Below, piece after piece: positions 46,367-64,000 of a stretch of 64,000 nucleotides of DNA. Numbering within the stretch: the first letter of the stretch is position 1; each line of letters begins with the position of its first letter. A model generated the notes under the pieces. The model did no database searches. It was not told the origin of the DNA and saw only the letters and a list, made by a program, of their open reading frames with translations. The DNA comes from Prolixibacteraceae bacterium. GTDB lineage: Bacteria > Bacteroidota > Bacteroidia > Bacteroidales > Prolixibacteraceae. The position numbers were made by a program, and so were the translations under genes. The stretch spans positions 1-64,000 of the forward strand of contig JAIBEY010000060.1 of NCBI GenBank assembly GCA_019459525.1, in the 5' to 3' direction.

Positions 46367-47776
46367 TTATTCTGACTGATCATCCTTTGTTGGATATTTT
46401 CGTTGCAGCCAAAGATAAACCGGTATCCCCGATAGAATCAGAATCAGGCCGATAATTGCCTCGCGGGGGCGGGCAACAATGGTATTCACAAACAAACCAA
46501 TACAAAAGAGGATAAAAATGGCGGGTACTACTGGGTATCCCCACACTTTGTATGGACGGTGGGCATCGGGCATCTTGCGGCGCAGAATAAATACGCCCAG
46601 CGTTGTAGCCCCGTAAAAAATGAATACCGCAAAAATAACCATGTCGGTTAACTGATCGAAAGTGCCCGACAAAACCAGCACCGAAGCCCAAATTCCCTGC
46701 CACAAAAGCGAGTTGGAGGGCACATTAAATTTGTTCAGCTTTTTGATACCCGAAAAGAAAAGCCCGTTACGGGCCATCGCATAATAAGGCCGCGAACCCG
46801 TAAGAATACTGGCATTGGTACATCCCAGTGTGGTCAGGAGTATCAGTAGCGAAATAAACATCACCCCTCCGGTTCCCCAAAAACTACGGACAGCCTCAAC
46901 CGCTGCAATCTGGTTACCCGCTTCATGAACCTGTACCAGTTGAGGAATAGACAGGAGCGAAAGATAGGTTACATTAACCAGCAGATAAATGAAAATAACT
47001 GCAAAAACACCCATCACAATTCCTTTCGGGATATTGCGGGTAGCATCTTTAACCTCACCCCCGATAAACCCAACCGAAACCCAACCCTGATAGGCCCAAA
47101 AAGCAGCCAGCATAGCCGTAAAAAAGGAAGAGAAGGTAACGGTTCCACTAATGAGATCTTTACTATCCATAAAATTGGCAGGTTTGGCCACCGAGCTGCT
47201 CAGGCCAAATACAATAATCAAAAGAAGGCCAGCGCAAACCAGCAACAAAATAGCTTTGCTTACCCCTGCCCCGCTTTTTAAACCTAAAATATTGAGTCCG
47301 GTTAATAGTAATATCAGTAGAATGGCAACGAGTTTTACCCCAAAATCCTGAAAGGGAAAGAACACCCCTCCTATCGAAAAATGTTGCAGCGAAGTAAGAA
47401 CTTCAGGAAGGGGTAGAATGCTATTCAGCGATTGGGCAAAAACATAAGCCAGTGAAGAAATGGTTGCCGTTTGAATGATGGTAAACAGCGACCAACCGTA
47501 TAAAAAAGCAAAAAAGCGGTTGTAAATTTTTTTCAGATATACAAATTCGCCACCGGTATCGGCCAGTAATCCGGCAACTTCGGCATTACTCAACGCACCA
47601 AAGAGGGTAATTATTCCCCCGACAATCCACGCCAGCAGTATCCAGGAGGACGACTGAAGTTCTACGGCCATCGGAGCTATTTTTTTATAGACTCCAGATC
47701 CAATGATATTTGCAACCACAAAAATAATAACATATCCCAAACCGAGCGTCTTGACCAAATTCCGTTGAGTACCCAT
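46367..47776 (-). CDS. amino acid permease (APC superfamily)
   Basis: Inner-membrane transporter of 469 residues with twelve predicted membrane helices. The first helix holds the unwound substrate-binding motif of the superfamily (FVVANIIGSGVYKK), and the second begins ALSNAEVAGLLADTGGEFVYLKK. It is closest in character to the LAT/basic amino acid-polyamine subgroup. Substrate is not determinable. It stands alone on the minus strand between PUL 3 and a T9SS cargo gene, and could take up amino acids released by the PUL 4 peptidases, but nothing links them directly. Confidence 0.92.
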   Translation of the reverse strand: MGTQRNLVKTLGLGYVIIFVVANIIGSGVYKKIAPMAVELQSSSWILLAWIVGGIITLFGALSNAEVAGLLADTGGEFVYLKKIYNRFFAFLYGWSLFTIIQTATISSLAYVFAQSLNSILPLPEVLTSLQHFSIGGVFFPFQDFGVKLVAILLILLLTGLNILGLKSGAGVSKAILLLVCAGLLLIIVFGLSSSVAKPANFMDSKDLISGTVTFSSFFTAMLAAFWAYQGWVSVGFIGGEVKDATRNIPKGIVMGVFAVIFIYLLVNVTYLSLLSIPQLVQVHEAGNQIAAVEAVRSFWGTGGVMFISLLILLTTLGCTNASILTGSRPYYAMARNGLFFSGIKKLNKFNVPSNSLLWQGIWASVLVLSGTFDQLTDMVIFAVFIFYGATTLGVFILRRKMPDAHRPYKVWGYPVVPAIFILFCIGLFVNTIVARPREAIIGLILILSGIPVYLWLQRKYPTKDDQSE

Positions 47777-50910: not shown

Positions 50911-50933
50911 AAACAGGACTATCAGAAGATAAA

Positions 50934-50960
50934 AAATCCCCGGCTTCACGCCAGGGATTT
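50934..50960. terminator. bidirectional terminator
   Basis: AAATCCCCGGC / GCCAGGGATTT stem (10 pairs, one mismatch) with a 5-base loop between the convergent nitroreductase and metallopeptidase genes, 23 bases after the nitroreductase stop. Confidence 0.75.
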
Positions 50961-51034
50961 CGATTCGTTACTTGCTCGTTAAAAGTGTCAGTAGTGCGAA
51001 TTCGTTTAAAACTTATCCGTACGAGATAAAAATC

Positions 51035-51841
51035 TTAAATCTTATAGCGATTCACTTTCAGATGTTTGGAAGGACTTACTTTGAATTCGGAAAAATACTG
51101 GTTTAACAGTTGATATAAATCCGGATCGTACTTTTTCAATTCTTCCCGTGTGTTTAGGGCATTGTGTTTCCCGTCGGGTTTGGCAACCTCGGCATTTACA
51201 TTAAACCAGTTCTGAACACCTTCAGCCCAATATTCGGCAATGTCGGTTTTCGCATAAGTATTGGCATATTTCCCTTTTGCCACAGCCTGATTCAGCAATT
51301 TCTCCAGTTTTTGGTTGAAAGTAGTGTCAACCTGAACAATCCCGATCAGGTGAATGGAATGCGCAAACTCGTGAATCAGAATATCTTCGGCATGGTATTT
51401 ATCGATCTGGTAAGCCAACAGGTTTTCTTCGGCACACGATGTTAACGGAAATTCCAGATCACCACCCAGCCCGCGGGCACGTAAATCCCAGTTCAGGGTG
51501 GTATCGGCAGCCAAATGGGCATGTTCAGGAATATCCGTAGTCCCTTCGTAGCGGGCCATAACCGAAACGCGGGTTTTTACTTTGACCATCGCGTCAAGTA
51601 CCGGTTTGGGTAAATCGCGGGTCATAAAATCGAGGATTCGCCATGCCTGAACCATAGCGGTATCAGGGACACGCCACGAAGCAGCAATTGCAATTCCATT
51701 GGCATCCATATACTTTTTGTAGAATTTATCCAGTTTCAGCGAATCTGGAACGCGGGTAACTGGCGGCACAAGTTTGGTGTTTTGCGCCTGAATGACAAAA
51801 GCTGCCAAAACGAAGACCAATAAAGCGAGTATCTTTCTCAT
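51035..51841 (-). CDS. secreted zinc metallopeptidase (HExxH), end of PUL 4 block
   Basis: 268 residues from the ATG at 51841, which starts the signal peptide (MRKILALLVFVLAAFVIQAQ); the in-frame ATG at 51871 lies inside a palindromic repeat. Zinc site HEFAH at 157-161 within DILIHEFAHSIH; Glu203 or Glu207 in EYWAEGVQNWF is the likely third ligand, a gluzincin-like layout resembling anthrax-lethal-factor-type domains. The substrate is unknown. It lies 82 bases after the dipeptidyl peptidase gene on the same strand, with a palindrome between. An exported peptidase beside an exopeptidase suggests joint protein digestion. Confidence 0.78.
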   Translation of the reverse strand: MRKILALLVFVLAAFVIQAQNTKLVPPVTRVPDSLKLDKFYKKYMDANGIAIAASWRVPDTAMVQAWRILDFMTRDLPKPVLDAMVKVKTRVSVMARYEGTTDIPEHAHLAADTTLNWDLRARGLGGDLEFPLTSCAEENLLAYQIDKYHAEDILIHEFAHSIHLIGIVQVDTTFNQKLEKLLNQAVAKGKYANTYAKTDIAEYWAEGVQNWFNVNAEVAKPDGKHNALNTREELKKYDPDLYQLLNQYFSEFKVSPSKHLKVNRYKI

Positions 51842-51856
51842 TTTTTCTATTTTTTC

Positions 51857-51915
51857 ACCACATAGACACATAGTTCACATAGATTTTTCTATTGTGTTCT
51901 ATGTGCCTATGTGGT
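51857..51915. repeat. palindromic intergenic repeat
   Basis: Arms of about 26 bases, starting ACCACATAGACACATAG and ending CTATGTGCCTATGTGGT, around a T-rich loop. Each arm contains CACATAG sub-repeats. It fills the gap between the peptidase genes and may terminate the upstream one. Confidence 0.65.
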
Positions 51916-51923
51916 TCTTTTTG

Positions 51924-54176
51924 TTATTTCACTGTTTTGTTCCAATCGGGTGTAGCCTGATTATAAAAGGTTTTCACGAAGAAGTCGCGGCGCTTCTGTT
52001 CCCCGTAATCGCCACCCAAGGTGTGATTTACTCCCGGAAGTACTACCAGTTCAAAATCTTTTTTGGCCGCAATCAGCGCATTCACCACTTGCATGGTCGA
52101 AGCCGGGTCAACATTATCGTCCACTTCGCCAACGATGAGTAACAGTTTCCCTTTGAGTTTTGAAGCATTCACCACATTCGAGCATTCAGCATATTCAGGC
52201 CCGATAGGGAACCCCATCCATTGTTCGTTCCACCAAATTTTATCCATGCGGTTGTCGTGACATCCGCAGGAGGATGAACCTGCTTTGTAAAATTCAGGAT
52301 GAAACAACAAGCCCGAAAGCGTATTTTGACCTCCGGCTGATCCCCCAAACAGTCCAACACGGGTAGTATCCATGTAGCTGTATTTTTCGGCTGCTGCCTT
52401 CATCCAACGAATACGATCGGGGAAACCTGCATCTTTCAGGTTTTTAAAACACACATCATGGAAGGCTTTTCCACGGTTCGAGGTTCCCATTCCATCCATC
52501 TGAACGATAATGAACCCAAGTTCAGCCAATCCAGAGAATGGGGAACTGGTTGGTCTGAAACTCTTTTGTGCAAACGAACTGTGTGGCCCGGCATAAATGT
52601 ATTCGACAATGGGGTATTTTTTCTTCGGATCGAAATTCGTTGGGCGGTAAATGTTGCCCCAAATGTCGGTTTTACCGTCGCGTGCTTTGGCCACGAAAGG
52701 CTCGGGAGCCATCCAACCCTTCGCTAGAAGATCAGTTATATCAGTTTTTTCGAGCTGCATTACTACCGAACCATCCGATGTGCGGCGCAAAACAGTTACC
52801 GGAGCCGCTTGCACCGTTGAGTAGGTATCGGTAAAATACTTGAAATCGGCAGAAAAAGTCGCCTGGTGGTCCATCTTTTCAGGAGTAAGATCGACCAAAC
52901 CGCTGCCATCGAAATTGATTTTGCAATAATGAATGTAATATGGATCTTCGTCGGCATTCCTTCCGGAAGCTTTGAAAATAATGGTATTCGATTTTTCATC
53001 AACCTTCACCACTTCGCGAACCACCCAGTTTCCGGAGGTAATTTGTTTTTTTACTTTCGATGATTTCGCATCGTACAGGTACAGGTGGTTCCAGCCGTCG
53101 CGTTCCGAAGCCCAGATGATTTCGCCTCGTTTATCCATGTCATACCTGAAAGTTTTGCCACTGTAATCGATAAACGTGTTGCTGCGTTCGTCGATGATTA
53201 CCCGCACTGTTCCTGATGTCCCGTCAACCTCAACCACCTGAAAAACCTGGTGGCCGCGCTGATTAAAATCGAACGTAAAAGCAGAGCTGCTTTCGTTCCA
53301 TTTTGGGTTCGAAAGATCGTACTGATTTTCAAAAGCTTTTGAATCAACCGGAATTTGCTTCAGGGTTTGAATATCAAAAAGCGAAGGATGTTTAATCGGT
53401 AGCGCATCGCCGGGTTTCAGGTAGTTCCGCTTTTGCAGGATGGGCTGCAACTGTGTTTTGGGCGACGATTCAACAAAATAGATAAAGTGATCTTCGTTTT
53501 TACGCACCTTGTTACAAGCCAGCTTTTTTGAATCGGGAGACCAACTGAAATACGACGAATAATAATCGCCCGCCGAACCATCGAAGCTCAACTGAACTTC
53601 TTTCTTGTCTTTTTCGTTCCGGATAAAAACATTGTAATTTTTGATAAACGCCACCCAAATACTATCGGGCGAAGTAACCGGCTTGTTGCCCAACTCGTCA
53701 AAACCGTCATTCCAGTAGGGGCGAGGCCCTTCGGGCTTGGCAACCGAATCTTTAGTCAGGGTATAATTTTTCAGGTGGCAGGTCCAGTAAGCATTCTCAA
53801 AAAGGAACTGAAACTTGTTTGCTTTCAGATCGAACTTCAGTTTTTGAAGCTGAACCGATTTGGGCGTTGTTTTCACTCCCGGTTGCTTATTCAACTGTTC
53901 AACCAGTTTGGCCACATCGAAGGCCGGTTTTCGGGTCAGTTTGGCAGCATCAATCAGTATAAAAGCCGCGCCTTCGCGGGTTTTCACCTGATACCAAAAT
54001 GTGGAGGTCGAATCGATCCAATTGACCGTATTGATTTGATTATAGACCAGATCATTCAGCTTCATAATCGAATCGGCTCGTTGATAATCGGCCGGGGTAA
54101 CCTGGGAAAAGACACTGAAAGAAGCACCGGATAGGATAAAAATGACTATCAGGCTTAATGAAATTTGTTTTAACAT
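51924..54176 (-). CDS. dipeptidyl peptidase IV-type S9 prolyl peptidase
   Basis: 750 residues with signal peptide ending SVFSQ. N-terminal eight-bladed beta-propeller (about 100-480, including SWSPDSKKLACNK and WASERDGWNHLYLYD) and C-terminal alpha/beta-hydrolase (about 500-750) with Ser613 in GLFGGSAGGQ, the Asp pair of VGEVDDNVDP and the His of LPGVNHTLGG. S9B enzymes cut X-Pro and X-Ala dipeptides from peptide N-termini, normally in the periplasm. It lies downstream of the GH127 gene on the same strand, separated by 187 bases containing a large palindrome, so co-transcription is uncertain. The pairing with an arabinofuranosidase is notable. Confidence 0.94.
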   Translation of the reverse strand: MLKQISLSLIVIFILSGASFSVFSQVTPADYQRADSIMKLNDLVYNQINTVNWIDSTSTFWYQVKTREGAAFILIDAAKLTRKPAFDVAKLVEQLNKQPGVKTTPKSVQLQKLKFDLKANKFQFLFENAYWTCHLKNYTLTKDSVAKPEGPRPYWNDGFDELGNKPVTSPDSIWVAFIKNYNVFIRNEKDKKEVQLSFDGSAGDYYSSYFSWSPDSKKLACNKVRKNEDHFIYFVESSPKTQLQPILQKRNYLKPGDALPIKHPSLFDIQTLKQIPVDSKAFENQYDLSNPKWNESSSAFTFDFNQRGHQVFQVVEVDGTSGTVRVIIDERSNTFIDYSGKTFRYDMDKRGEIIWASERDGWNHLYLYDAKSSKVKKQITSGNWVVREVVKVDEKSNTIIFKASGRNADEDPYYIHYCKINFDGSGLVDLTPEKMDHQATFSADFKYFTDTYSTVQAAPVTVLRRTSDGSVVMQLEKTDITDLLAKGWMAPEPFVAKARDGKTDIWGNIYRPTNFDPKKKYPIVEYIYAGPHSSFAQKSFRPTSSPFSGLAELGFIIVQMDGMGTSNRGKAFHDVCFKNLKDAGFPDRIRWMKAAAEKYSYMDTTRVGLFGGSAGGQNTLSGLLFHPEFYKAGSSSCGCHDNRMDKIWWNEQWMGFPIGPEYAECSNVVNASKLKGKLLLIVGEVDDNVDPASTMQVVNALIAAKKDFELVVLPGVNHTLGGDYGEQKRRDFFVKTFYNQATPDWNKTVK

Positions 54177-54222
54177 GGTTTATTATTTGGTTTTCGTTTC
54201 TAAGTTCTGTAAAATGTTTATT

Positions 54223-54339
54223 GTCGTATTTTTTCACCCCAAACCCCTGAAGGGGCTTAGGCTGTGAGCATCGCAACCCATTATCAATGTGTCAAGTCCC
54301 CTTTAGGGGATTTAGGGGTTAACGAAAGGGGAATACGAC
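54223..54339. repeat. MITE-like palindromic element with GTCGTATT ends
   Basis: A 117-base imperfect palindrome bounded by perfect 8-base inverted ends GTCGTATT (54223-54230) and AATACGAC (54332-54339). Inside, each half contains a smaller CCCCTNAAGGGG-like palindrome (CCCCTGAAGGGG; CCCCTTTAGGGG). Such 'cccctaaatcccc' modules are dispersed in Bacteroidota genomes. No coding capacity. Confidence 0.6.
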
Positions 54340-54363
54340 ATTATTTTATTCTCATTACTTAAC

Positions 54364-57300
54364 TTATTCTTTCAAAGTAACATCCAGATAAACAGAATGA
54401 CGCCCGTATGATTCATAAAAAGGCTTAAAAACAACACCGTCAATATTAAACTGCAACTGCCCGGCATCTCCTGTTATCGATTTACTGATGTCTTTTACAT
54501 TTAAGGTTACCTTACGCCATTCTTTTAGTGGCGCTGACTCCTGAGCTGCCAACAAAACGGGTCCGTAAAACAAACTGGCAATGTTTTGCTGATCCATGAC
54601 CGGCTCCAAATAAAAATGAAACGGCATACGCAACTCAACCTGATCACCGTCTTTCCATTTACGGCTTATCGTAAGATAGCTTCCCGGCATAGCCTTAACT
54701 TCTTCATTCTTACCATTTATCTTCACAAAAAAACCTTTAGTTGCCCAATGAGGCACACGTACATTGAGGTCAAACTTACCATTTCCTTTAATGGTTAACA
54801 GCGTATGGTCTTCTTTTGGGAAAGCTGTTGTTTGCGTTACAGTTACATTCTTTTCTGTCCATTTTAATGTTGAAGGCACGAACAAATTCACATACAAAGC
54901 TTTATTGTCGGCACTTTTAAAATAAATCGAGTTCTGAAGTTTTGTGCTACTCTCAAGCGCCGTACCGTTACAGCAGGTAAAACCGCTCATATCATCGTTA
55001 CTAAACTGTTTTACCGAACCGGCATTCAGTGGCACGTGGTAAGTATTTGCAGGACTGTCTTCGGCAACAGATGCCAGAATGTGATTGTAGAGCCCACGCT
55101 CGTAATAATCCATTAGCTCGCCACGCTGTTCAAAAAGGAAAAGGTTTCCGGTTAACTTGAGCATATTATAGGTAGCACAGGTTTCATTCTGGCCATCAGC
55201 CGAAAAACCGTTCTCGTAAATTGTTGCCGGTTGGGCGATGAAACACTCCGCGTTATTCGGGTTTCGCGCTCCTGCAACACCACCTATACTGTACATATAG
55301 TCGTTAGTTGTTATATTCCAGAAATTATCAGCGATATGATAATATTCAGGTGCATCCAGGTCGCGATAAATTTCGAGTGCCCCCACAATCTGAGGAATGT
55401 GCTGGTTGGCATGTAACCCGCGGAAAAGATCTACATTTTTTGCCAGTCCGTGAGCATGTTCAGCATCGCCATAAAATACTTTAATGTTATCAAATAAACG
55501 TGCAACTTCCATGTAACGCGGCTCATTCGTTAAACGCGACAACCTTGCCATTGCTTCGTTCATCCCACCAAACTCCCCGGCGATGTACTTGTTCCACATG
55601 CTGATAAGTGTTGGGGTTGGCACCTTACTCAACCTGGCATACACCCAGTCGCCCATGCCTTTTACTGTTTCCAAAGCCTTTTCATTTCCACTGACTTCAT
55701 AAATATCCATCAACCCGGCAAGGATTTTATGCAAGGTATAGTAGGGTGCCCAAATTTTGGTTTTATCGCCTCCGTAGCTTGCCCCTTTTTCCAACATGAT
55801 AAACTGGTCGGGCGGATAGGCGCTAATAAACCCTTTGCCCCAGTTCCAGTAATCGGTACGAATGCCGCCTTCACTCAAATCTGAATCATAGTTTGATTTA
55901 CCTGAACCGGTCGGCACAGCAGTTGGATCTGAAACAGATTCTCCCCCTGCGATCTTTGGTTGTCCCGACATTTGTGCCAGTTGATACAATGTATTCACCA
56001 TATAATCCATCTTATCAGCAAACTTAGCCTGAAGTGAGACATCATAACCGGTACTCGCATATGCCTGGGCAATGGCGCTTAGGTAATGACCTGTGGCATG
56101 TCCACGCAATTTAGTTTCCTGACTATCCCACACCCCTAGTGGTTTGGTTCCCTTGGGTTGTTCCTGCCCAAAGGCATTACGAAACATATACAAAAAATCG
56201 TCAGGATTTGTTTTGGCTAAACCAGTAATAAATTTATCGCGGTTTTCGATGAATTTCGTGTTATGGTTGTGATTGTCAACATCTAATGTAACCTGATCAA
56301 GTTTAAAAAATTCGAGGGTGCGATTGGGCGTAGCTGTCGCTTTCGTTTCTTGAACAACGACAATGGCTTTGGGTTGCAGGTTTGTTCCGGCAACCTTTCC
56401 GGTAACCGCATAAGTGCCAGCGGTAAGTACCTGGCCATTATCCTTAGGGGCCGGCCAAATTACCCTCACTTCCGGCCCTTCAATATCATTGCTGTAAATA
56501 CCCTTTACAAAACGTGGTAATCTCGGAAGGTTCCCGACCACGGTTTCTACCTGAATATCCGGTACACTTTTTAAATAGGCATTGTACAACTGAGGGGTTG
56601 TTGCCGGAAACTTTTGAAGCCCTCTTTCCGATTCTTCGTTGGTTCTGACTACCGATTCGCCCTCGCTTAAAGCATTGCGATGGATCCGTGCAATTTGTTT
56701 ATCATTCAATGCAATCCTGTAGATACGGAAATCATGTAATTTGGCATTTAAACCAGCTTCATCCGAGTTCAGTGATTTTCCGATATAGAGTTTATTCGTT
56801 TCTCCTGAATTACTTTTGAAGAGCTGACTTAGCACCACATCAATATTCTTTGTTTCATTGACAAGCGCCCCATTAATATAAGTACTCAACGTTTTGAACG
56901 GAACATTAATCACCACAGCTAAATGAATCCATTTATTAACTGCAACTGCCGGTGAGTTTGAAAAATAGCTATTCAGTTCAGTTTGTATCTGAGCCTGAAA
57001 TCCTTCCTTGTCTTTAATCCCAACCGGAGCGGCAAAGAAATGCGATTTCCCGTCTTTCCCAAAATCGAAAAACAACTGCCCGCTGTTGGCAGACCGCAGG
57101 TAAATCCATCCGGCAATACTAAGTGTTTCCTCACCTGTCACCGATTTAGCCGGAAGCGATATAAACGTCTCACTATTACCGCTTAAAGAAAGTACGTTTC
57201 CAAACAGTTCGTCTTTTACAAACCTGAAGTCAGTTCCATGAATGGTGCCATGCAAATTATTACGCGACCAATCTTTTGCATCCCCGTTAAATGTATAGCG

Positions 57301-57423
57301 GGAAATTAGTCCCGTTTCCCCTATACCGTCCAATATCTGATCACCGTTTTGTGCTACTACCGAGGTCGCACCCGAAACATAAAAACATAGTAAAAGTCCA
57401 ATGATTAATTTATGTAATTTCAT
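54364..57423 (-). CDS. LamG-fused beta-L-arabinofuranosidase, GH127/GH146 type
   Basis: 1019 residues from ATG 57423, where the signal peptide starts (MKLHKLIIGLLLCFYVSGAT); an in-frame ATG at 57528, directly after the stop of the preceding gene, would add 35 residues. LamG/concanavalin-like domain (about 25-245), an Ig-like linker (about 290-370) and the (alpha/alpha)6 catalytic domain (about 375-1019, ex-DUF1680). All four zinc ligands of the GH127 site are visible: Glu747 and Cys749 in NETCATYNM, Cys817 and Cys818 in TCCNGTALESS, one of the latter being the nucleophile. Family members release L-arabinofuranose from beta-linked chains such as those on hydroxyproline of extensins. Confidence 0.93.
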   Translation of the reverse strand: MKLHKLIIGLLLCFYVSGATSVVAQNGDQILDGIGETGLISRYTFNGDAKDWSRNNLHGTIHGTDFRFVKDELFGNVLSLSGNSETFISLPAKSVTGEETLSIAGWIYLRSANSGQLFFDFGKDGKSHFFAAPVGIKDKEGFQAQIQTELNSYFSNSPAVAVNKWIHLAVVINVPFKTLSTYINGALVNETKNIDVVLSQLFKSNSGETNKLYIGKSLNSDEAGLNAKLHDFRIYRIALNDKQIARIHRNALSEGESVVRTNEESERGLQKFPATTPQLYNAYLKSVPDIQVETVVGNLPRLPRFVKGIYSNDIEGPEVRVIWPAPKDNGQVLTAGTYAVTGKVAGTNLQPKAIVVVQETKATATPNRTLEFFKLDQVTLDVDNHNHNTKFIENRDKFITGLAKTNPDDFLYMFRNAFGQEQPKGTKPLGVWDSQETKLRGHATGHYLSAIAQAYASTGYDVSLQAKFADKMDYMVNTLYQLAQMSGQPKIAGGESVSDPTAVPTGSGKSNYDSDLSEGGIRTDYWNWGKGFISAYPPDQFIMLEKGASYGGDKTKIWAPYYTLHKILAGLMDIYEVSGNEKALETVKGMGDWVYARLSKVPTPTLISMWNKYIAGEFGGMNEAMARLSRLTNEPRYMEVARLFDNIKVFYGDAEHAHGLAKNVDLFRGLHANQHIPQIVGALEIYRDLDAPEYYHIADNFWNITTNDYMYSIGGVAGARNPNNAECFIAQPATIYENGFSADGQNETCATYNMLKLTGNLFLFEQRGELMDYYERGLYNHILASVAEDSPANTYHVPLNAGSVKQFSNDDMSGFTCCNGTALESSTKLQNSIYFKSADNKALYVNLFVPSTLKWTEKNVTVTQTTAFPKEDHTLLTIKGNGKFDLNVRVPHWATKGFFVKINGKNEEVKAMPGSYLTISRKWKDGDQVELRMPFHFYLEPVMDQQNIASLFYGPVLLAAQESAPLKEWRKVTLNVKDISKSITGDAGQLQFNIDGVVFKPFYESYGRHSVYLDVTLKE

Positions 57424-57528
57424 AGTATATCTATTATTTTTCCAATAGTATGATTTATAGCTCCATTTACTTAGCCTCAAACAAACGCTTAGTGAATTTT
57501 CAACGAGCTGTTTGATTTTTTTATGCAT

Positions 57529-58095
57529 TTAATTCAGAGCAATTTCATATTTACACCTTTCGTTTCCGCGATGAATCGACGAAATTACCCTTGCAGTTAC
57601 CGAATGCCCGGCAACTGTCGAGAACATTTTTTCAGCAAAACCTTCGGAACAATAGCACAGAATAGACGATCGAACGCCCTTTTCTTTATTGACCATCGGA
57701 CAAACACACTGAGACTTATTCTCATCAGCAATTATTACTCCTGATTCCTGATTGTAATCGATCTTCCAATCCCATTTTTCAGAAATAAATCGGGTAAACT
57801 TTTCGATGTCACCAACATATGGGGCAAGTACTTTATCCATTTCCAGATAATTGTAGTGTGCCATCGCACAGGGTTTCATGATCTTTCGGCACTCTTCATC
57901 ACTGGCATTTTCATCAATATTCAGGAGCAAAGTTAATATCCAATCCTGCATAAACTTATGGTTTTTGTCATCTGGTTCTGCGGCATTTGTACTTTCTGAA
58001 GGATTAGACGCATGAACGGCAAGCGAAGTAAATCCGCAAAAACAAGCGCCGGACAGACAGGCTTTCTTGAAAAAATCTTTACGGGTAAGTGTCAT
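57529..58095 (-). CDS. Cys-rich exported protein with Tat-like signal, function unknown
   Basis: 188 residues. The N-terminus TRKDFFKKACLSGACFCGF resembles a twin-arginine signal with Arg-Lys in place of Arg-Arg, suggesting export after folding or cofactor loading. The mature part has seven Cys (69, 76, 130, 132, 147, 149, 181), including CVCPM and CYCSEGFAEKMF, with a C-terminal strand pattern ending HRGNERCKYEIAL that recalls V4R-like hydrocarbon or metal-binding domains; this likeness is weak. It lies inside PUL 4 between the DUF5695-like protein and GH127, and its stop directly abuts an in-frame ATG of the GH127 frame. Confidence 0.7.
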   Translation of the reverse strand: MTLTRKDFFKKACLSGACFCGFTSLAVHASNPSESTNAAEPDDKNHKFMQDWILTLLLNIDENASDEECRKIMKPCAMAHYNYLEMDKVLAPYVGDIEKFTRFISEKWDWKIDYNQESGVIIADENKSQCVCPMVNKEKGVRSSILCYCSEGFAEKMFSTVAGHSVTARVISSIHRGNERCKYEIALN

Positions 58096-58200
58096 ATTAT
58101 TTACGATTAAATGATTTACAATTTACAACCCTCTTTTTAACTGAGTTCTCGCTTTACCTCTTATAGTCTGTTTGCTTTATTTATTTATCCAATATTCGGT

Positions 58201-60957
58201 CTATTGTCGAAGTTTAACCAACACCGGTTCTTTTGCCAGCTGAACCTCAAAAGTTCCCCTTTCGTTTTGGTTTAAACCTTTGGTTGTGTATTTGTTCCCG
58301 GCAAAAGATTCGATCCGGAGATAGGCGTTGGGCGCAAATTCATTCGATTTATCCAGTTCAACACGAACTTCTTTCGATTTTGTGTCGAACGAAATTGATT
58401 TGAACTTTCCGGCATCCAGCGTGAGCCACAATCCAGCAGGGGCAAGGTAAATACGCGATTTGGCCGCTGTCGTCAAGTCAACTTTTACCAAATTACCCTT
58501 GAGTGTTAGGTTTCCACCAAAAGCCAGCCAGCCAAATTCATTATCATGAACGATATAAGTTGCTGTATTTATGGCATATCCGAAATATCCACAACCATAA
58601 TCGCCCGAAATACCATCGTTTTTCAGTTCGGTTGGGAACGAATGGAAAGCGCATGGGGCAAAACCTTCTTCGGTAATGTTAGAGAGCGTTCCAAGCAAAC
58701 CGCCATAGCCAACGCGAAGCAAATACAAATCGTCAGGAGTTTGCCTGTACTGGCTTAACACAGGAATCGCATTCAACCCGGAGCCATAATGGTGAATCAT
58801 CCGTTCGATGCGCGATAATTTCCCGCCATACAGGAAATCCCAGTAACGACGGGCATTTCCGTTGTATGCCCAATGCGGAACGGTTGGCATATAGGCCAGG
58901 ATAGCTTTTAAAGTGACCATTGCTTTTTCGTCGAACCCGAAATATTTCGACCACATGTAAACCTCTTCCTGTCCGGTTGAATCCCACGACATTTCGCTGC
59001 CAAACGGATAACTGAGCGTTGCCCAGTGCCCGGCGCGGCCTTTCATCGTTTTTTCCAGGTCTGCAGCCAAATCGGTGTATCCTTCCCGTTTCAGGTCTTC
59101 CAGAATCAGCAGAAAAACTGTTCCTTCCATTTGCCCGAACTGAGCATAATACGGAGCCTGCTCCATCATGGCCACTGCCGTATGATAAGCATTTTCGAGG
59201 TACCATTGCCAAGGTTGTTTGCTAACTAAACCGTTGTAATTCCGGGCAAGGCGGTACATCACCCAATGGGCGGCAGCCACGTGTGGATAATTGTATGAGC
59301 GATCGGTAATTTCGGCGCCCTTGCGATTCCATGCCGACCAAACTTTGAAATTAATGTCTTTGCTGTACGTTCCGGCAGGCATACTGTCGGGCTCATAAAA
59401 GAACATACTTTTGCGCACGCCGTATTTCAGTTTTCCGTCGCTATATTGAATACCACCCCAAATGGTCTGATTGACAAATGTTTCGAGTTTTTGAATTTCT
59501 TCTTTATCGGGCTGAACCAATTGTTTCATGATGGCATTCAGCCAGCTACCTGCCCCACCCTCGTCGCTCAATCCACAAATCCATGCACGGCGATCTTGCA
59601 TTACCTGTTGTTTTTTCTCGTCATCGTAGGTAATTACCGAAGGACTTCGGTGAAACAAATCGTTTGGGTTTTCATACCACTGATTGGTGGTCAAAAATTT
59701 ACCGTTATCAGCCACAACCTGCGACTCAGGCTTTATGATTTTATAATTGATTGTTTGCTGAAGACTGTCAGCATAAGTAATTGTTAATCGGGCACGGCCC
59801 CATGTTTTTCCTTTCACGGCGTATTCCATCCAGCCGTTTTTGGTTTTTCCCGCTTCTGCAAGTTCCAAAGCGCCCAGCGGTTCCACCTTGACGGAACTGA
59901 TTTTTTGATTGTATTTCAGGAACAATTTGGCATCAACATCCTGAGGAACAACATATCCGGGAATACCTACTGTTGCAGGGCGATTGTTTTCAATTAATGT
60001 TTTTTCGATGTGTTCGACTTTGTCAGTCAGTATAAATTTTATACCAACGTGGTGTATTTTGCCTGGTTGGAGGGTTACCGAGGTTGGCGAATTCCATTGT
60101 TCCACATTTTTCCATTCGTTTTCTGCAAAGGCTTTGCTGTTGACCATCCATTCGTGGAAACCCTCGAAAGTAGTTCCTTGCGGAGTTGGGTCATCTGTTA
60201 GTGGACGATAAGCTTCGAAGGGCGTTTTTCCGTAAGGAACAACCAGCATAACAGGTGCATGACCGTTCAGGCGAACAACCTGTAAATAACCGGCATCCCT
60301 GCCGATGTAAGGATCGAAAAATACAGTCTCTTCGTGAGCCTGATCAAGTTCTTTGCCATCGAGATTGTTGTTGAATATCATTGGAATCCCCAATGCTCCA
60401 ATTTCAACCGGGTTACCGGATATATTTTTCAGTTCGAACCGCAAAACAAGGCTATTCCCTTCTTTTTCCCAGTAGCGGATTACCTGCAAAGGCAGTGTTT
60501 CGGGCAGTGAATTGGCCAAATCGGCTGCTGCCAAAACCGTTGCATTTTCAGGAGTAAGCGATTTTACCGAAGCCCGTTTGGTTGCGGTTGAGAACGATTC
60601 CCATTGCCCATCTGTTCCGGTTCTTAACCTGAAGTTTAAATCGCCCAAATGGTAGTAGCCGTCTTTATCGCGTTTGTTCAACCGGTCATGTGGCGTGAAA
60701 TCAAACTTTTCAGTGTCTGTGGTGCGCAATGAGGAAACTGTCTGCGATGATTTTAACAGTTCGAGATCAAAACTGCCTGTATGAAATGAAACAACACCTT
60801 GTTCAATTCCCAATGTTGATGGGCTATTACTTGCTGGTTGCTTCTGCGAAAAGGCATAACCGGTAAAAAAAACAAATAGAGTAACGAAAACAATGAATCT
60901 TCTACCGATTTGAAAAACTTCGTGCTGGGGTCCGATGGCTGATGACGATTTTCGCAT
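58201..60957 (-). CDS. DUF5695-like secreted protein, probable glycosidase
   Basis: About 918 residues from ATG 60957, chosen because it places the signal segment RRFIVFVTLFVFFTGYAFSQ near the N-terminus; the frame also opens at 61086, giving 961 residues. Beta-sandwich domains to about residue 440, then an (alpha/alpha)-helical barrel-like region with many Trp and His (HVAAAHWVMYRLARNYNG, PYYAQFGQMEGTVFLLILEDL, YPFGSEMSWDSTGQEEVYMWSKYFGF, YNGNARRYWDFLYGG). The layout is that of DUF5695 proteins, found in many Bacteroidota PULs and possibly related to a recently defined exo-glucuronidase-type family; I cannot confirm the family number. It follows susD. Confidence 0.75.
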   Translation of the reverse strand: MRKSSSAIGPQHEVFQIGRRFIVFVTLFVFFTGYAFSQKQPASNSPSTLGIEQGVVSFHTGSFDLELLKSSQTVSSLRTTDTEKFDFTPHDRLNKRDKDGYYHLGDLNFRLRTGTDGQWESFSTATKRASVKSLTPENATVLAAADLANSLPETLPLQVIRYWEKEGNSLVLRFELKNISGNPVEIGALGIPMIFNNNLDGKELDQAHEETVFFDPYIGRDAGYLQVVRLNGHAPVMLVVPYGKTPFEAYRPLTDDPTPQGTTFEGFHEWMVNSKAFAENEWKNVEQWNSPTSVTLQPGKIHHVGIKFILTDKVEHIEKTLIENNRPATVGIPGYVVPQDVDAKLFLKYNQKISSVKVEPLGALELAEAGKTKNGWMEYAVKGKTWGRARLTITYADSLQQTINYKIIKPESQVVADNGKFLTTNQWYENPNDLFHRSPSVITYDDEKKQQVMQDRRAWICGLSDEGGAGSWLNAIMKQLVQPDKEEIQKLETFVNQTIWGGIQYSDGKLKYGVRKSMFFYEPDSMPAGTYSKDINFKVWSAWNRKGAEITDRSYNYPHVAAAHWVMYRLARNYNGLVSKQPWQWYLENAYHTAVAMMEQAPYYAQFGQMEGTVFLLILEDLKREGYTDLAADLEKTMKGRAGHWATLSYPFGSEMSWDSTGQEEVYMWSKYFGFDEKAMVTLKAILAYMPTVPHWAYNGNARRYWDFLYGGKLSRIERMIHHYGSGLNAIPVLSQYRQTPDDLYLLRVGYGGLLGTLSNITEEGFAPCAFHSFPTELKNDGISGDYGCGYFGYAINTATYIVHDNEFGWLAFGGNLTLKGNLVKVDLTTAAKSRIYLAPAGLWLTLDAGKFKSISFDTKSKEVRVELDKSNEFAPNAYLRIESFAGNKYTTKGLNQNERGTFEVQLAKEPVLVKLRQ

Positions 60958-61101
60958 TAAGCCGATACCTTGATTTTGTTTATAACTGGATAACGCTAAT
61001 TGAGTTTGGTTCATATCCTGTTTTATGGTCGAATACGTTGACATTTGATTTTCAGCAATATACATAATTTTCCTGAATCGCGCCAATAGTCAGGAGAAAT
61101 G

Positions 61102-61121
61102 CCCCCGGAAAATTCCGGGGG
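61102..61121 (-). terminator. GC-rich hairpin between susD and the first enzyme gene (PUL 4)
   Basis: Perfect 9-base stem CCCCCGGAA / TTCCGGGGG with a 2-base spacer, 65 bases after the susD stop. There is no long T run. It fits an attenuator or a 3' stability hairpin for the susCD message. Confidence 0.6.
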
Positions 61122-61185
61122 AACATTTGACACTGTTTAATATGAATGATGTCAGAGCTCTGTACATGTCCAGAGCAGGGGGAAT

Positions 61186-62790
61186 TTAATTGTAACCCGG
61201 ATTTTGTTTCAGGTTCGGATTGGTATTTAATTCTTCTTCGCCAATTGGGAAAAGAATTGTATGGTTACCCTGAGGTGTATGGTTGTACCAACTCTTTTTC
61301 TGATAAGCTCCAAAACGAATCATATCGGTACGACGACGGAACTCGGCAGCAAACTCCCAGCCCAGTTCATCAAGGAAACGACCATACTGAATTGGTGTTT
61401 GATCGCCCGCATTAGCAATATTCCCATTTTCATCCAAGGTTCCATATTTGATCGTGGAGTTTCCTTCCAGTTCGGCACCGGTAACTTTGGCTTTATTAGC
61501 GTCTTCGAAGGCGCGGGCACGAACCTGAGAGACGATTTGTGCGGCCTCATCACTTTTTCCTGTCCGGAGTAAACATTCAGCCTTCATCATCAGCACATCG
61601 GTATAACGAAAATAGGGCAAATCGTTACTCATACTACCCTTGCAACCAATGGCTATTTCGTATTTGCAAACACGATAACCTTCTTCAAACTCGCAGAAGT
61701 AAATACTTGGCATTTTGTTTACCAAGGTCATTACAACACTTCCGTTTGTGGCATTAATCTGGTCGCCATGCAGCCAGGTTGCATCAAAACGTTTGTCGCC
61801 CGGATCGTAGCTATTGATGAATTGCGGATTGGCACTTGAACCACCCCAGGGTTGCGAGGTCATGTTAAATACATAACGATGCTGAGGCAAAAGCTGTTTC
61901 ATGTGTGCGTTCCAGCCTTGCCCATAGATATTGTCGTAGGGAACTGCAAACACAATTTCTTTTGAGCTTTCGTTATTTACTTTAAAAGGATTGCGGTAAT
62001 CAGCCTCCAAAATAAAATTTCCACTGGCGATGATTTTGTCGCAAGCTTCGATACATTTCGCCCATTCGGCCGACCCTTTATACACTTCAGCATTCAAATA
62101 CATACGGGCAAGCAACTGCCATGCCACCCACTGCGTCATACGTCCATAAGTGCTCTTATCAACATTCGCAGGTAAATTAGGCATAACATCGGTCAACTCG
62201 GCTATAATAAAATTATAAACTTCAACCCGTGTCTTTTGAGTTGGAATCTCATCGCTATAGGTAATTACCAATGGAATATTTCCGTGCGTATCACAAAGGA
62301 TGGAATACCACAAAGCACGCAAGGCCCGCAATTCTGATTTGATGACCACGCCTTGTTCTTCGGTTACCGGAAGAGAACCTGCATCAACCTGCATCATAAC
62401 CCGGTTGATATTGTTTATGGCCTCATAAGCAGTTATCCAGGTATTTCGGGGCTGCCATTGCTGGCTGTTCCAGGTGTGAAAATGCATTTGTTTGTAAGTA
62501 CCGCCATCATCCCAACCATTGGGGCGCGTTGGAGTAATAATAATATCACCAGGTTCTTCCTGAACATCAAACAAACCCTGCCAGCCCATAATATAGCGGA
62601 GAGGAGTATATCCGGACGCCATCAGGGCAACAATATCATCATCAGCCGGAATAAAAGATTCTTGCGTGACTTCAGAAAACACCTTTTCATTCAGATCAGT
62701 ACACGCGCCTGATATTAAAACCAAACCTAAACTCAGTAAAGCGATACCTGACCTTATAATTGCTTTTGTTTTGATATATCTTCTTTTCAT
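61186..62790 (-). CDS. SusD/RagB-family glycan-binding lipoprotein, PUL 4
   Basis: 534 residues with lipobox SGAC after the signal peptide and the opening TDLNEKVFSEVTQESF. Family features: KSELRALRALWYSILCDTHGNIPLV, FRYTDVLMMKAECLLRTGKSDEA, WEFAAEFRRRTDMIRFGAY and the closing LKQNPGYN. It starts 10 bases after the SusC stop and forms the surface lid of that transporter. The substrate, inferred from linked enzymes, is an L-arabinofuranose-bearing glycan or glycopeptide. Confidence 0.95.
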   Translation of the reverse strand: MKRRYIKTKAIIRSGIALLSLGLVLISGACTDLNEKVFSEVTQESFIPADDDIVALMASGYTPLRYIMGWQGLFDVQEEPGDIIITPTRPNGWDDGGTYKQMHFHTWNSQQWQPRNTWITAYEAINNINRVMMQVDAGSLPVTEEQGVVIKSELRALRALWYSILCDTHGNIPLVITYSDEIPTQKTRVEVYNFIIAELTDVMPNLPANVDKSTYGRMTQWVAWQLLARMYLNAEVYKGSAEWAKCIEACDKIIASGNFILEADYRNPFKVNNESSKEIVFAVPYDNIYGQGWNAHMKQLLPQHRYVFNMTSQPWGGSSANPQFINSYDPGDKRFDATWLHGDQINATNGSVVMTLVNKMPSIYFCEFEEGYRVCKYEIAIGCKGSMSNDLPYFRYTDVLMMKAECLLRTGKSDEAAQIVSQVRARAFEDANKAKVTGAELEGNSTIKYGTLDENGNIANAGDQTPIQYGRFLDELGWEFAAEFRRRTDMIRFGAYQKKSWYNHTPQGNHTILFPIGEEELNTNPNLKQNPGYN

Positions 62791-62800
62791 AATTGTTTCA

Positions 62801-64000
62801 TTAGAAAGTTACGTTAACACCAAATGTAAATGTCCTGGTTGTCGGATATTTATCGCGTTCATCGTTACCCGGATCAAGACCCGTTTGTCTGACTTCAGGA
62901 TCGATACCTTTATAACCGGTAAGTGTAACCAGATTCATGCCTGAAGCATAAATACGCAGGTTCTTGAAGGTATTCTTGTTGTTTAACTTCACGGTGTAAC
63001 CCAAGGTCGCATTATCGATTTTCCAGTAGTCACCATCTTCAACATAATAGCTTACAAATCGCTGAACATCTGTCAGAACGGCCTTCCCATAAACCTTGTC
63101 GTAGGCAGAATTTAAAGTATTGTAACCTATCGTTGGATTCTCGTAGAACATCCGGGAGAAATTCAGAATCTGGTATCCGAAAGCGCCACGCATGTTGATG
63201 CTGAGATCGAAGTTTTTATATTTAAAATTATTATTCCAACTGGCGTAATATTTAGGGATACCATTACCCAGAACCTGACGATCGTCGGTTGATGATTCAG
63301 TTGCAGGAATGCGGGTTCCATCGGGTTTTTCAATAATCCAGATACCATCATCGGTAATATCAACACTTCTCAATCCATAAAAATCGCCAATCGGACCACC
63401 AATTTTTATGCGGTGTGTCTCAATCTGAATGGGCTCGCCGGTATAACCCGCATAAAAGAAATCACTGGTTGTCTGGAATTTTTCGTTCGACAATGACACC
63501 AATTCGTTTTTATTGGTTGAAAACGTAAATCCGGCATTCCAGGTGAAATCGTTGGTTCTAACCGGAATTACATTAATCAAAGCTTCGAATCCCTGGTTTT
63601 TAATCTCGCCTACGTTTGCCATGATGGTACCATACAAATACGGAGGTGTTGGGACGCTGTAATTCCATAAAGCATCTTTAGTCAGACGGTTATAAAAATC
63701 GAGCGCACCACTTAACCGACCACCAAACAAATCAAAATCGAGCCCCAGGTTTATTTCTTCTTTTTTCTCCCATCTCAGTTCCGGGTTGTCGTTTCTTACC
63801 GGAACTAATTTGCGGACCCATTGTCCGTCGTAGAAAAAATAATCACTATAATCGAGACTACTCAATGAATTGTATGAGTTTGCCACATTAATTCCGGTGA
63901 TACCAAACCCTGCCCTTAGTTTCAGATTATCAATCCATGTGGCACTTTTCATGAATGGTTCTTCTGTAATACGCCATCCGGCAGAAACTCCAGGGAAATT
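62801..64000 (-). CDS. SusC-family TonB-dependent transporter, C-terminal 400 residues (cut by window end), PUL 4
   Basis: The frame is open through the window edge: codons before the Met at 63952 read [15 protein letters not shown], which is ordinary SusC barrel sequence, so that Met is not a start and the gene continues beyond 64000. The visible part is the C-terminal half of the beta-barrel, including [45 protein letters not shown] and the C-terminal strand [12 protein letters not shown]. Whether it has an STN domain, and how PUL 4 is regulated, cannot be seen. Confidence 0.95.

What the first reader, a model, noticed from the sequence alone, without database searches (positions are those of the whole stretch)
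51035..64000. PUL 4 combines a beta-L-arabinofuranosidase with a prolyl dipeptidase and a metallopeptidase: possible hydroxyproline-rich glycoprotein utilisation system
The sequence shows SusC-SusD-DUF5695-Cys-rich protein-GH127-DPP IV-zinc peptidase all on one strand. GH127 enzymes act on beta-L-arabinofuranosides such as Hyp-linked arabinans of plant extensins, and DPP IV removes X-Pro dipeptides. Together they suggest that one locus strips the sugar and then digests the proline-rich protein. Peptidases are uncommon as fixed PUL members. The 187-base gap with a palindrome before DPP IV leaves room for the peptidases being independent.
Basis: partly seen in the sequence, partly recalled or inferred. 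Interest (0 to 1): 0.72.

Follow-up and report, generated by a model that had tools for sequence, protein, structure and literature searches.

The report
Bacterial locus eating hydroxyproline-rich glycoproteins
This stretch of a Bacteroidota genome looks like a kit for eating the arabinose-coated, hydroxyproline-rich proteins of plant or algal cell walls, stripping the sugars and then cutting the proline-rich chain; related genomes place genes for burning hydroxyproline beside the same enzymes, but nothing has been tested at the bench.

Summary
The gene row is real: SusC-SusD-DUF5695-Cys-rich protein-beta-arabinofuranosidase-S9 peptidase-metallopeptidase, all minus strand, SusC running on to contig base 66088. 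The glycosidase is GH146-like rather than GH127. The 'DPP IV' lacks the Glu-Glu loop of true DPP IV. The metallopeptidase is distantly M34-like; its low-confidence model matches Pro-Pro endopeptidases best. In 395 phylum genomes, 16 carry this S9 subfamily; 11 of those have a 4-hydroxyproline epimerase, 7 of 11 within 20 kb (0.09 expected). The epimerase lies within 20 kb of a GH127/GH146 gene in 11 of 77 genomes (0.9 expected), of a GH2 control in 1 (1.6 expected; list incomplete). The window's own genome holds the hydroxyproline operon, on another contig. The stated refutation is half met: GH146 and the S9 gene are linked in 6 of 24 close relatives, but the two peptidases stay together in 26 of 31 genomes and near glycan genes of the set in 27 of 31. 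Most likely an extensin-type glycoprotein locus. Enzyme specificities are inferred.

The parts
62801..64000 (-). SusC-like TonB-dependent transporter, C-terminal part (whole gene C51:62801-66088; FecR-like anti-sigma C51:66246-67259 and ECF sigma C51:67373-67996 lie upstream)
   Evidence: TIGR04056 and PF00593; continuation read in L009; FecR and ECF labels from reading the sequences, not from a profile search
61186..62790 (-). SusD-like lipoprotein
   Evidence: PF07980, PF14322
58201..61086 (-). DUF5695 protein, predicted beta-rich N-terminal part plus helical part, PL27-like fold; the only copy found in the genome; start codon uncertain
   Evidence: PF18951; model pLDDT 83.9, pTM 0.88; best Foldseek match BACCELL_00875 5nok/5no8, E 6.5e-28, TM 0.78 on the target, 15% identity; single match in the genome
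57529..58095 (-). small Cys-rich protein with signal-like N-terminus, weak DUF6144/V4R resemblance, function unknown; found in 3 of 80 named loci
   Evidence: PF19641 E 1.8e-4, below its cut-off; loci L030, L031, L034
54364..57528 (-). LamG-Big_4-GH146-type beta-L-arabinofuranosidase with intact zinc/catalytic Glu-x-Cys (782-784) and Cys-Cys (852-853) motifs
51924..54176 (-). S9 serine peptidase of a DPP IV-like subfamily without the Glu-Glu N-terminus-binding loop; GGSAGGQ active-site motif
   Evidence: PF00930, PF00326; alignments
51035..51871 (-). gluzincin-type zinc peptidase with signal-like N-terminus, distant M34 relative, candidate Pro-Pro endopeptidase
   Evidence: HEFAH motif with His145, Glu146, His149, and Tyr184, Glu191, Trp106 (numbering of window:51035-51805): these residues invariant in 20 of 20 aligned sequences; Foldseek best PPEP-1 E 1.8e-3 (no match at E<=0.001) on a model of pLDDT 64.8
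54177..54363 (-). 187-base gap with inverted repeat, no terminator-like hit
50933..50961 (-). terminator-like stem-loop after the last gene

Best explanation
A polysaccharide-utilisation-type locus for arabinosylated hydroxyproline-rich glycoprotein, most likely extensin-like plant or green-algal wall protein. SusC/SusD capture and import glycopeptides. The GH146 enzyme removes beta-L-arabinofuranose from hydroxyproline; DUF5695 removes or opens another part of the glycan. The M34-like peptidase cuts inside Pro/Hyp runs and the S9 peptidase trims prolyl peptides. Freed hydroxyproline is burned by the cell's epimerase - D-amino-acid oxidoreductase - DHDPS-type deaminase - aldehyde dehydrogenase operon, encoded elsewhere in this genome (contig 69), and arabinose by the usual isomerase route. 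Shown: gene order, families, conserved catalytic motifs, linkage across genomes, presence of the candidate hydroxyproline operon. Inferred: every substrate and every step of the order.
For: The fullest form of the cluster, in Flavobacterium and Muricauda/Flagellimonas loci, reads AraC - DHDPS - ALDH - 4-Hyp epimerase - DAO - (amino acid permease in some) - S9 - GH146 - (DUF885) - DUF5695 - GH43; Confluentibacter, Salegentibacter and Pustulibacterium have parts of it. 16 of 80 loci hold at least two of the four Hyp genes, 13 of these 16 also hold the S9 gene. The epimerase of L062 passes the NCBIfam equivalog cut-off (531.9 against 376), and all 16 epimerases have Cys in both motifs. In family genomes G105 and G113 the Hyp genes, an aminopeptidase P-type M24, both peptidases, GH127/GH146 and, in G113, GH27 and GH43 lie in one region. 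Phylum sample, 395 genomes with the window's own: S9 subfamily in 16, epimerase in 77, both in 11, Fisher p 1.6e-5 (5.5e-5 without the own genome); 7 of 11 within 20 kb, 0.09 expected. Epimerase to GH127/146 within 20 kb: 11 of 77 genomes, 0.9 expected; GH2 control 1, 1.6 expected. Family: 17 of 31 S9 genomes have a proline-racemase-family gene against 11 of 109 others, p 5e-7. GH27 alpha-galactosidases lie beside the S9 gene or the GH146 next to it in G001, G032, G091, G092 and G113, which fits the Ser-O-galactose of extensin. GH146 enzymes XeHypBA1 and Bll4HypBA1 act on Araf-beta1-Hyp (PMC10850190, passages).
Against: In this genome the Hyp operon is on another contig, not beside the locus. 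GH146 and the S9 gene are linked in 6 of 24 close relatives only; in genus g5 they are mostly over 90 kb apart or on other contigs. Three of 80 loci (L065, L066, L088) have Hyp genes beside GH146 without the S9 gene. Of the 16 phylum genomes with the S9 subfamily, 5 have no epimerase, and in 4 more it is 75 kb away or on another contig; around the S9 gene of G486, G490 and G533 no gene of the set was labelled except a 26% GH51-type match in G533. In family genomes G056, G093 and G015 no glycan gene of the set lies near it. 34 of 77 epimerase genomes have no GH127/146 at E<=1e-20. DUF5695's best fold match is a lyase acting on gum arabic (an arabinogalactan-protein), not extensin. The DHDPS, ALDH and DAO members fall below NCBIfam equivalog cut-offs, so their roles rest on context. 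Relatedness among genomes is not corrected for in the p-values.
Confidence: 0.66

Rival explanations
1. An arabinogalactan-protein or pectic-arabinan locus in which GH146 trims terminal beta-Araf and the peptidases clear protein in general.
For: BT0349, the nearest solved relative, sits in an RG-I locus (PMC10850190 passage); DUF5695's model resembles PL27, whose members release Rha from gum arabic; window Trp593 aligns with a Trp of the BT0349 chain that may be its pocket residue Trp162 (offset not verified).
Against: No galactanase, rhamnosidase or pectin lyase is among the seven genes. The linkage of S9 and of GH127/146 genes to a 4-hydroxyproline epimerase is far above chance and not seen for the GH2 control.
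Confidence: 0.21
2. The peptidase pair is a separate hydroxyproline-peptide module (for instance for collagen-like or algal peptides) that is shuffled into glycan loci by chance or by shared induction.
For: In G361 and G482 the S9 gene sits with the Hyp genes, M61, DUF885, an M1-like and M24 genes and no glycosidase was labelled in the 20 kb read; the pair is often far from GH146.
Against: In both G361 and G482 a GH146-size gene lies 21 kb from the epimerase. In 27 of 31 family genomes at least one of GH146/127, DUF5695, GH43, GH27 or GH51 lies in the stretch read around the S9 gene; of the other four, one (G102) is on a 3.3 kb contig. Some loci add AraR, arabinose isomerase, a symporter and an aldolase-II gene.
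Confidence: 0.1

Closest known systems
Bifidobacterium longum HypBA1/HypBA2/HypAA cluster with ABC transporter
   Same: Beta-L-arabinofuranosidase chemistry on Hyp-linked arabinosides of plant hydroxyproline-rich glycoproteins (PMC7263609 start of abstract in the listing, PMC10850190 passages)
   Different: [quoted passage not shown] Here a SusCD transporter, two peptidases and, in relatives, Hyp catabolism genes
Xanthomonas euvesicatoria XCV2724/2728/2729
   Same: XCV2724 is a GH146 member active on Araf-beta1-Hyp (PMC10850190 passages; start of PMC6085000's abstract in the listing)
   Different: Only the abstract start was seen, so transporter and gene neighbours were not checked
Bacteroides thetaiotaomicron BT0349 (GH146) in an RG-I locus
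   Same: Closest solved structure for the catalytic domain, same zinc-cysteine motifs
   Different: Pectic context (PMC10850190 passage); [quoted passage not shown] no peptidase mentioned in the passages seen
Bll3HypBA1 (GH146, B. longum)
   Same: Also has LamG and Ig-like domains (PMC10850190 passage)
   Different: Beta1,3-specific, acts on rice AGP; lacks the Trp aligned between BT0349 and the window enzyme
Pro-Pro endopeptidases PPEP-1/-2/-3 (M34)
   Same: HEXXH, a Tyr-Glu pair seven residues apart, an upstream Trp at the spacing of PPEP-1 Trp103
   Different: No sequence-level match to a PPEP at E<=10; the only M34 sequence matches are weak, to lethal factor (E 0.021); low-confidence model
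PL27 L-rhamnose-alpha-1,4-D-glucuronate lyase BACCELL_00875
   Same: Fold of the DUF5695 model, TM 0.78 on the target
   Different: 15% identity; catalytic residues not compared
Latescibacteria in-silico HRGP degradation proposal (PMC4454575)
   Same: Earlier genome-based proposal that GH127, and AGP-active enzymes, serve HRGP use (abstract and passages)
   Different: No gene-cluster or hydroxyproline-catabolism linkage in the passages seen

Membership tests
Polysaccharide utilisation locus | Adjacent SusC and SusD homologues with glycan-active genes on one strand | tested here: met
GH146 beta-L-arabinofuranosidase | Closest characterised relatives are GH146, not GH127 | tested here: met
   5opj E 6.7e-66 and 8k7y 3.8e-41 before the GH127 enzyme 3wkw at 4.7e-7; family names from PMC10850190 and recall
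GH146 beta-L-arabinofuranosidase | Zinc ligands Glu-x-Cys and Cys-Cys | tested here: met
   ETC at 782, CC at 852; aligned with 5opj and 8k7x; motif pair in 78 of 81 sequences, the other three have CC but no ETC
GH146 beta-L-arabinofuranosidase | Activity on beta-Araf | not testable with these tools
   needs purified enzyme
DPP IV (S9B) | S9 propeller and hydrolase domains with GxSxGG serine motif | tested here: met
   PF00930, PF00326; GGSAGGQ
DPP IV (S9B) | Glu-Glu loop that binds the substrate N-terminus (role recalled; seen as DEEM in 5yp1 and 2ecf) | tested here: not met
   gap; 0 of 61 sequences have the motif in residues 101-320, one of the 61 (L102) being outside the subfamily; gap also
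M34 / Pro-Pro endopeptidase | HEXXH with Tyr and Glu (Y-x6-E) downstream | tested here: met
   invariant in 20 of 20; register agrees with the LF alignment
M34 / Pro-Pro endopeptidase | Significant sequence similarity to the family | tested here: not met
   ATLF E 0.008, 16.3 bits against a cut-off of 27.4, for the window protein; 4 of 20 relatives match ATLF at E<=1, best 2.6e-4, and 6 of 20 match M90, best 4e-4; profile search best LF E 0.021, no PPEP
M34 / Pro-Pro endopeptidase | Fold | tested here: inconclusive
   PPEP-1 best, E 1.8e-3, TM 0.63 on the target, no match at E<=0.001, model pLDDT 64.8
M34 / Pro-Pro endopeptidase | Cleavage between prolines | not testable with these tools
   needs peptide assay
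trans-4-hydroxyproline catabolism operon (own genome, C69) | 4-Hyp epimerase with DAO, DHDPS and ALDH genes together | tested here: met
   C69 operon with divergent AraC; epimerase NF010578 584 bits against cut-off 376; Cys90 and Cys253 motifs; the other three by BLAST to the flavobacterial members (43-65%)
PL27 | Sequence membership and catalytic residues | tested here: inconclusive
   fold match only, 15% identity

The most novel reading that the evidence does not exclude
A Bacteroidota system for complete use of hydroxyproline-rich glycoproteins: sugar, backbone and hydroxyproline. It would use a new DPP IV-like S9 subfamily without the N-terminus-binding loop together with a Bacteroidota relative of Pro-Pro endopeptidases that cuts (arabinosylated) Hyp-Hyp bonds, and DUF5695 would be a new PL27-like enzyme family acting on the same glycoproteins.
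Probability: 0.4. Interest if true: 0.8.

Novelty: new variant of a known kind. Interest (0 to 1): 0.66.

Why it matters
PULs are defined by sugar chemistry; a locus that also digests the protein and, in relatives, feeds the freed hydroxyproline into its own catabolic operon would extend the concept to whole glycoproteins. Extensins and related proteins are structural proteins of plant and green-algal walls, and which bacteria eat them, and how, is poorly known. The linkage gives an immediate, testable enzyme list, including two peptidase groups and one DUF without known substrate.

Tried and rejected
The reading 'canonical DPP IV' was rejected for lack of the Glu-Glu loop. 'Housekeeping peptidases that happen to lie here' was rejected: the S9 subfamily is in 31 of 140 family genomes (at 53% identity or more) and 16 of 395 phylum genomes (E<=1e-150), and stays beside the metallopeptidase in 26 of 31. 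'GH127' was replaced by GH146-like. The 187-base palindrome as a terminator: no terminator-like hit there; the repeat occurs once in the window. A search of the metallopeptidase sequence against solved structures gave nothing below E 0.6 and with a profile only weak lethal-factor matches among relevant proteins. A single-sequence search of DUF5695 against solved structures gave one match at E 0.35, an antibody. No description of this system was found (DUF5695); only the listings were seen except for the papers named in the report, and the library holds only open-licence papers, so absence there is weak. The eLife 2014 proline-racemase paper was opened only for one passage, which names peptidase families as neighbours in a Bacilli cluster; the words Bacteroidetes, extensin, Flavobacter and Pedobacter do not occur in its main text. 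Pairs within 20 kb in the GH127 and GH2 comparisons were picked by reading the lists; the GH127 distances were then computed. The GH2 list was cut by the tool at about E 1.6e-27, so its observed count (G400, 16 kb) is for listed matches only, while the expected value uses all 188 counted matches. L102's S9 protein was dropped from the subfamily counts (39% identity, other motif). Loci with short flanks were kept in the 80-locus counts; 68 of 80 are longer than 20 kb. Neighbourhoods were labelled by BLAST to my own clusters, so genes without a label are not annotated.
Full report
What is there. The transporter gene runs past the window to contig base 66088; upstream lie genes that read as a FecR-type anti-sigma factor and an ECF sigma factor, then a neighbouring system with a GH78-like protein (these upstream labels come from reading the sequences). 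The window lies on contig 51 (172 kb) of a 5.54 Mb, 116-contig genome. Its nearest named relatives by the GH146 gene are an unclassified Bacteroidetes assembly (L030, 86% identity) and a Prolixibacteraceae assembly (L031, 85%).

The proteins. The glycosidase has LamG and Big_4 domains before a GH127-type catalytic domain. Its best solved relatives are the GH146 enzymes BT0349 and Bll3HypBA1; GH127 enzymes come far behind. The zinc/catalytic motifs ETC (782) and CC (852) align with those enzymes. GH146 includes enzymes that act on Araf-beta1-Hyp (XeHypBA1, Bll4HypBA1; passages of PMC10850190), but also pectic and AGP enzymes, so family membership alone does not settle the substrate. The S9 peptidase has the right domains, but the segment that carries DEEM in bacterial DPP IV structures is missing, and 0 of 61 homologous sequences have such a motif (one of the 61, L102, lies outside the subfamily). 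In the alignment six other S9 paralogues of the family show no Glu-Glu in that segment either, so the exo- or endo-mode is open. The metallopeptidase has the two His and the Glu of HEXXH, and a Tyr and Glu seven apart, invariant in 20 of 20 sequences, and an invariant Trp, 39 residues before the first His in the window protein; PPEP-1 has Trp103, Glu143 and Tyr178 (titles; passages of PMC12828418), giving the same Trp-His spacing, and a glutamate tandem 184/185 that includes the zinc ligand. Its model is weak (pLDDT 64.8). The three best Foldseek matches are Pro-Pro endopeptidase PPEP-1 (best E 1.8e-3; none at E<=0.001), with lethal factor (rank 4) and PPEP-3 (rank 5) next. By sequence only weak lethal-factor matches appear. 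DUF5695 folds (pLDDT 83.9) like PL27 BACCELL_00875 (E 6.5e-28), which releases Rha from gum arabic by a lyase reaction (passages of PMC8377490).

Linkage, named loci. The best 80 of 150 GH146 relatives in one-genome-per-species contigs were read with up to 10 kb flanks and their genes clustered. DUF5695 is in 37 of 80, the S9 subfamily in 27 of 80, two or more hydroxyproline genes in 16 of 80, both of the last two in 13 (Fisher p 1.8e-5 with no correction for relatedness, and 11 of the 16 are Muricauda-group loci). The fullest order, in Flavobacterium and Muricauda-group loci, is AraC, DHDPS, ALDH, 4-Hyp epimerase, DAO, S9, GH146, DUF885, DUF5695, GH43. An amino acid permease is in L041, L047, L095 and L098, the last two without Hyp genes in the stretch read. 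A NrtR/AraR-type Nudix regulator is in 12 of 80 and an ArfA-like (GH51-type, below the ArfA cut-off) gene of one cluster in 8 of 80. Epimerase, D-amino-acid oxidoreductase, DHDPS-family deaminase and aldehyde dehydrogenase are, from established knowledge of the pathway (recalled), the four steps from trans-4-hydroxy-L-proline to alpha-ketoglutarate. Only the epimerase is named by a curated equivalog above its cut-off.

Linkage, family. Of 140 family genomes, 31 have the S9 subfamily at 53% identity or more. The metallopeptidase lies within 1.5 kb in 26 of 31, 9 kb away in one (G130), and was not found in four (G042, G091, G093, G102), of which G091's S9 gene ends its contig and G102's contig is 3.3 kb. 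Four genomes have a metallopeptidase without the S9 gene; in three of these four it lies beside a GH146-type gene (G063, G104, G106). In 27 of 31 at least one of GH146/127, DUF5695, GH43, GH27 or GH51 was found in the stretch read around the S9 gene; not in G056, G093 and G015, nor on the 3.3 kb contig of G102. A proline-racemase-family gene is in 17 of the 31 and in 11 of the other 109; this family model also takes in relatives of the epimerase. GH146 orthologues and the S9 gene are linked in 6 of 24, so the particular combination in the window is one of several. In G105 and G113 the hydroxyproline genes are in the same region as the peptidases and arabinosidases, with an M24 aminopeptidase P-type gene.

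Linkage, phylum. In a sample of 395 genomes (the window's own among them), 77 have the 4-Hyp epimerase and 16 the S9 subfamily at E<=1e-150; 11 have both (Fisher p 1.6e-5; 5.5e-5 without the own genome), and in 7 of 11 they lie 0.3 to 12.6 kb apart, where 0.09 would be expected under random placement. In the other four they are 75 kb apart (G400) or on different contigs (G000, G329, G502). Among the 77, 43 have a GH127/146 gene, and in 11 it lies within 20 kb of the epimerase, against 0.9 expected; three more lie at 20.9 to 23.3 kb and one at 28 kb. For GH2, with more genes (188), 1 is found among the listed matches and 1.6 expected. Reading eight of these loci shows Hyp genes beside GH127/146, in two with GH27, in two with DUF885, in one with M24.

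The window's own genome has the four hydroxyproline genes with a divergent AraC regulator on contig 69, beside a GH92 and a SusC-type gene, one arabinose isomerase match, one DUF5695 match and one S9 gene of this subfamily. So the pathway end is present, but not linked here.

How it most likely works. Glycopeptides are bound and imported by SusCD, beta-arabinose is stripped by GH146, DUF5695 treats another glycan part, the M34-like peptidase and the S9 peptidase cut the Pro/Hyp-rich chain, and hydroxyproline and arabinose are catabolised. GH27 alpha-galactosidases beside the S9 gene, or beside the GH146 next to it, in G001, G032, G091, G092 and G113 fit the galactose on extensin serine (PMC13164431 passages, speak of O-galactosylated serine and alpha-Gal-Ser). 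Extensin is preferred over AGP because no galactanase is among the genes identified; many neighbouring genes have no label, so this is weak. Green-algal wall glycoproteins are equally possible. All activities are inferred.

Novelty. GH146 on Hyp-arabinosides is known, and an HRGP diet was proposed for Latescibacteria from gene lists (PMC4454575, abstract and passages). I found no report of a Bacteroidota locus that joins these sugar enzymes to prolyl peptidases and hydroxyproline catabolism (open-licence library only). It is a new variant of a PUL, with candidate new enzyme functions inside it.

Noticed in passing
window 58201-61086: DUF5695 is predicted to share the PL27 lyase fold; it recurs in 37 of 80 GH146 loci and may be an uncharacterised carbohydrate-active family.
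   Followed up: partly
window 57529-58095: Small Cys-rich protein abutting the GH146 gene with 0 bases between; found in 3 of 80 loci (L030, L031, L034) and in G001 (L124). Function unknown.
   Followed up: no
window 46367-47776: A permease gene whose protein is 31-34% identical to the amino acid permease found in four GH146 loci (L041, L047, L095, L098); on the same strand as the locus but separated from it by two plus-strand genes.
   Followed up: partly
L114 4858-7980 (contig 69): A GH92 gene with a PL4-type CBM-like domain lies right after the hydroxyproline genes and next to a SusC-type gene in the window's genome; another GH92 is in the window at 43999-46284.
   Followed up: no
L133 8863-13580 and L179 7372-11930: Two tandem copies of the S9 peptidase in two relatives; in one copy (L133 8863) the serine motif reads GRSAGGQ instead of GGSAGGQ.
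   Followed up: no
window 61102-61121: 8-pair, GC-rich stem-loop (CCCCCGGAATTTTCCGGGGG) between SusD and DUF5695, perhaps a processing or attenuation element.
   Followed up: no
L139 and L140: Loci of G361 and G482 with the S9 peptidase among the hydroxyproline genes and M61, DUF885, M1-like and M24 peptidase genes but no glycosidase labelled in 20 kb; GH146-size genes lie 21 kb from the epimerase. Perhaps a peptide-centred version of the system.
   Followed up: no
L035, L040, L043: Three GH146 relatives keep the Cys-Cys pair but lack the Glu-x-Cys (ETC) half of the zinc site, so they may be inactive or changed enzymes.
   Followed up: no
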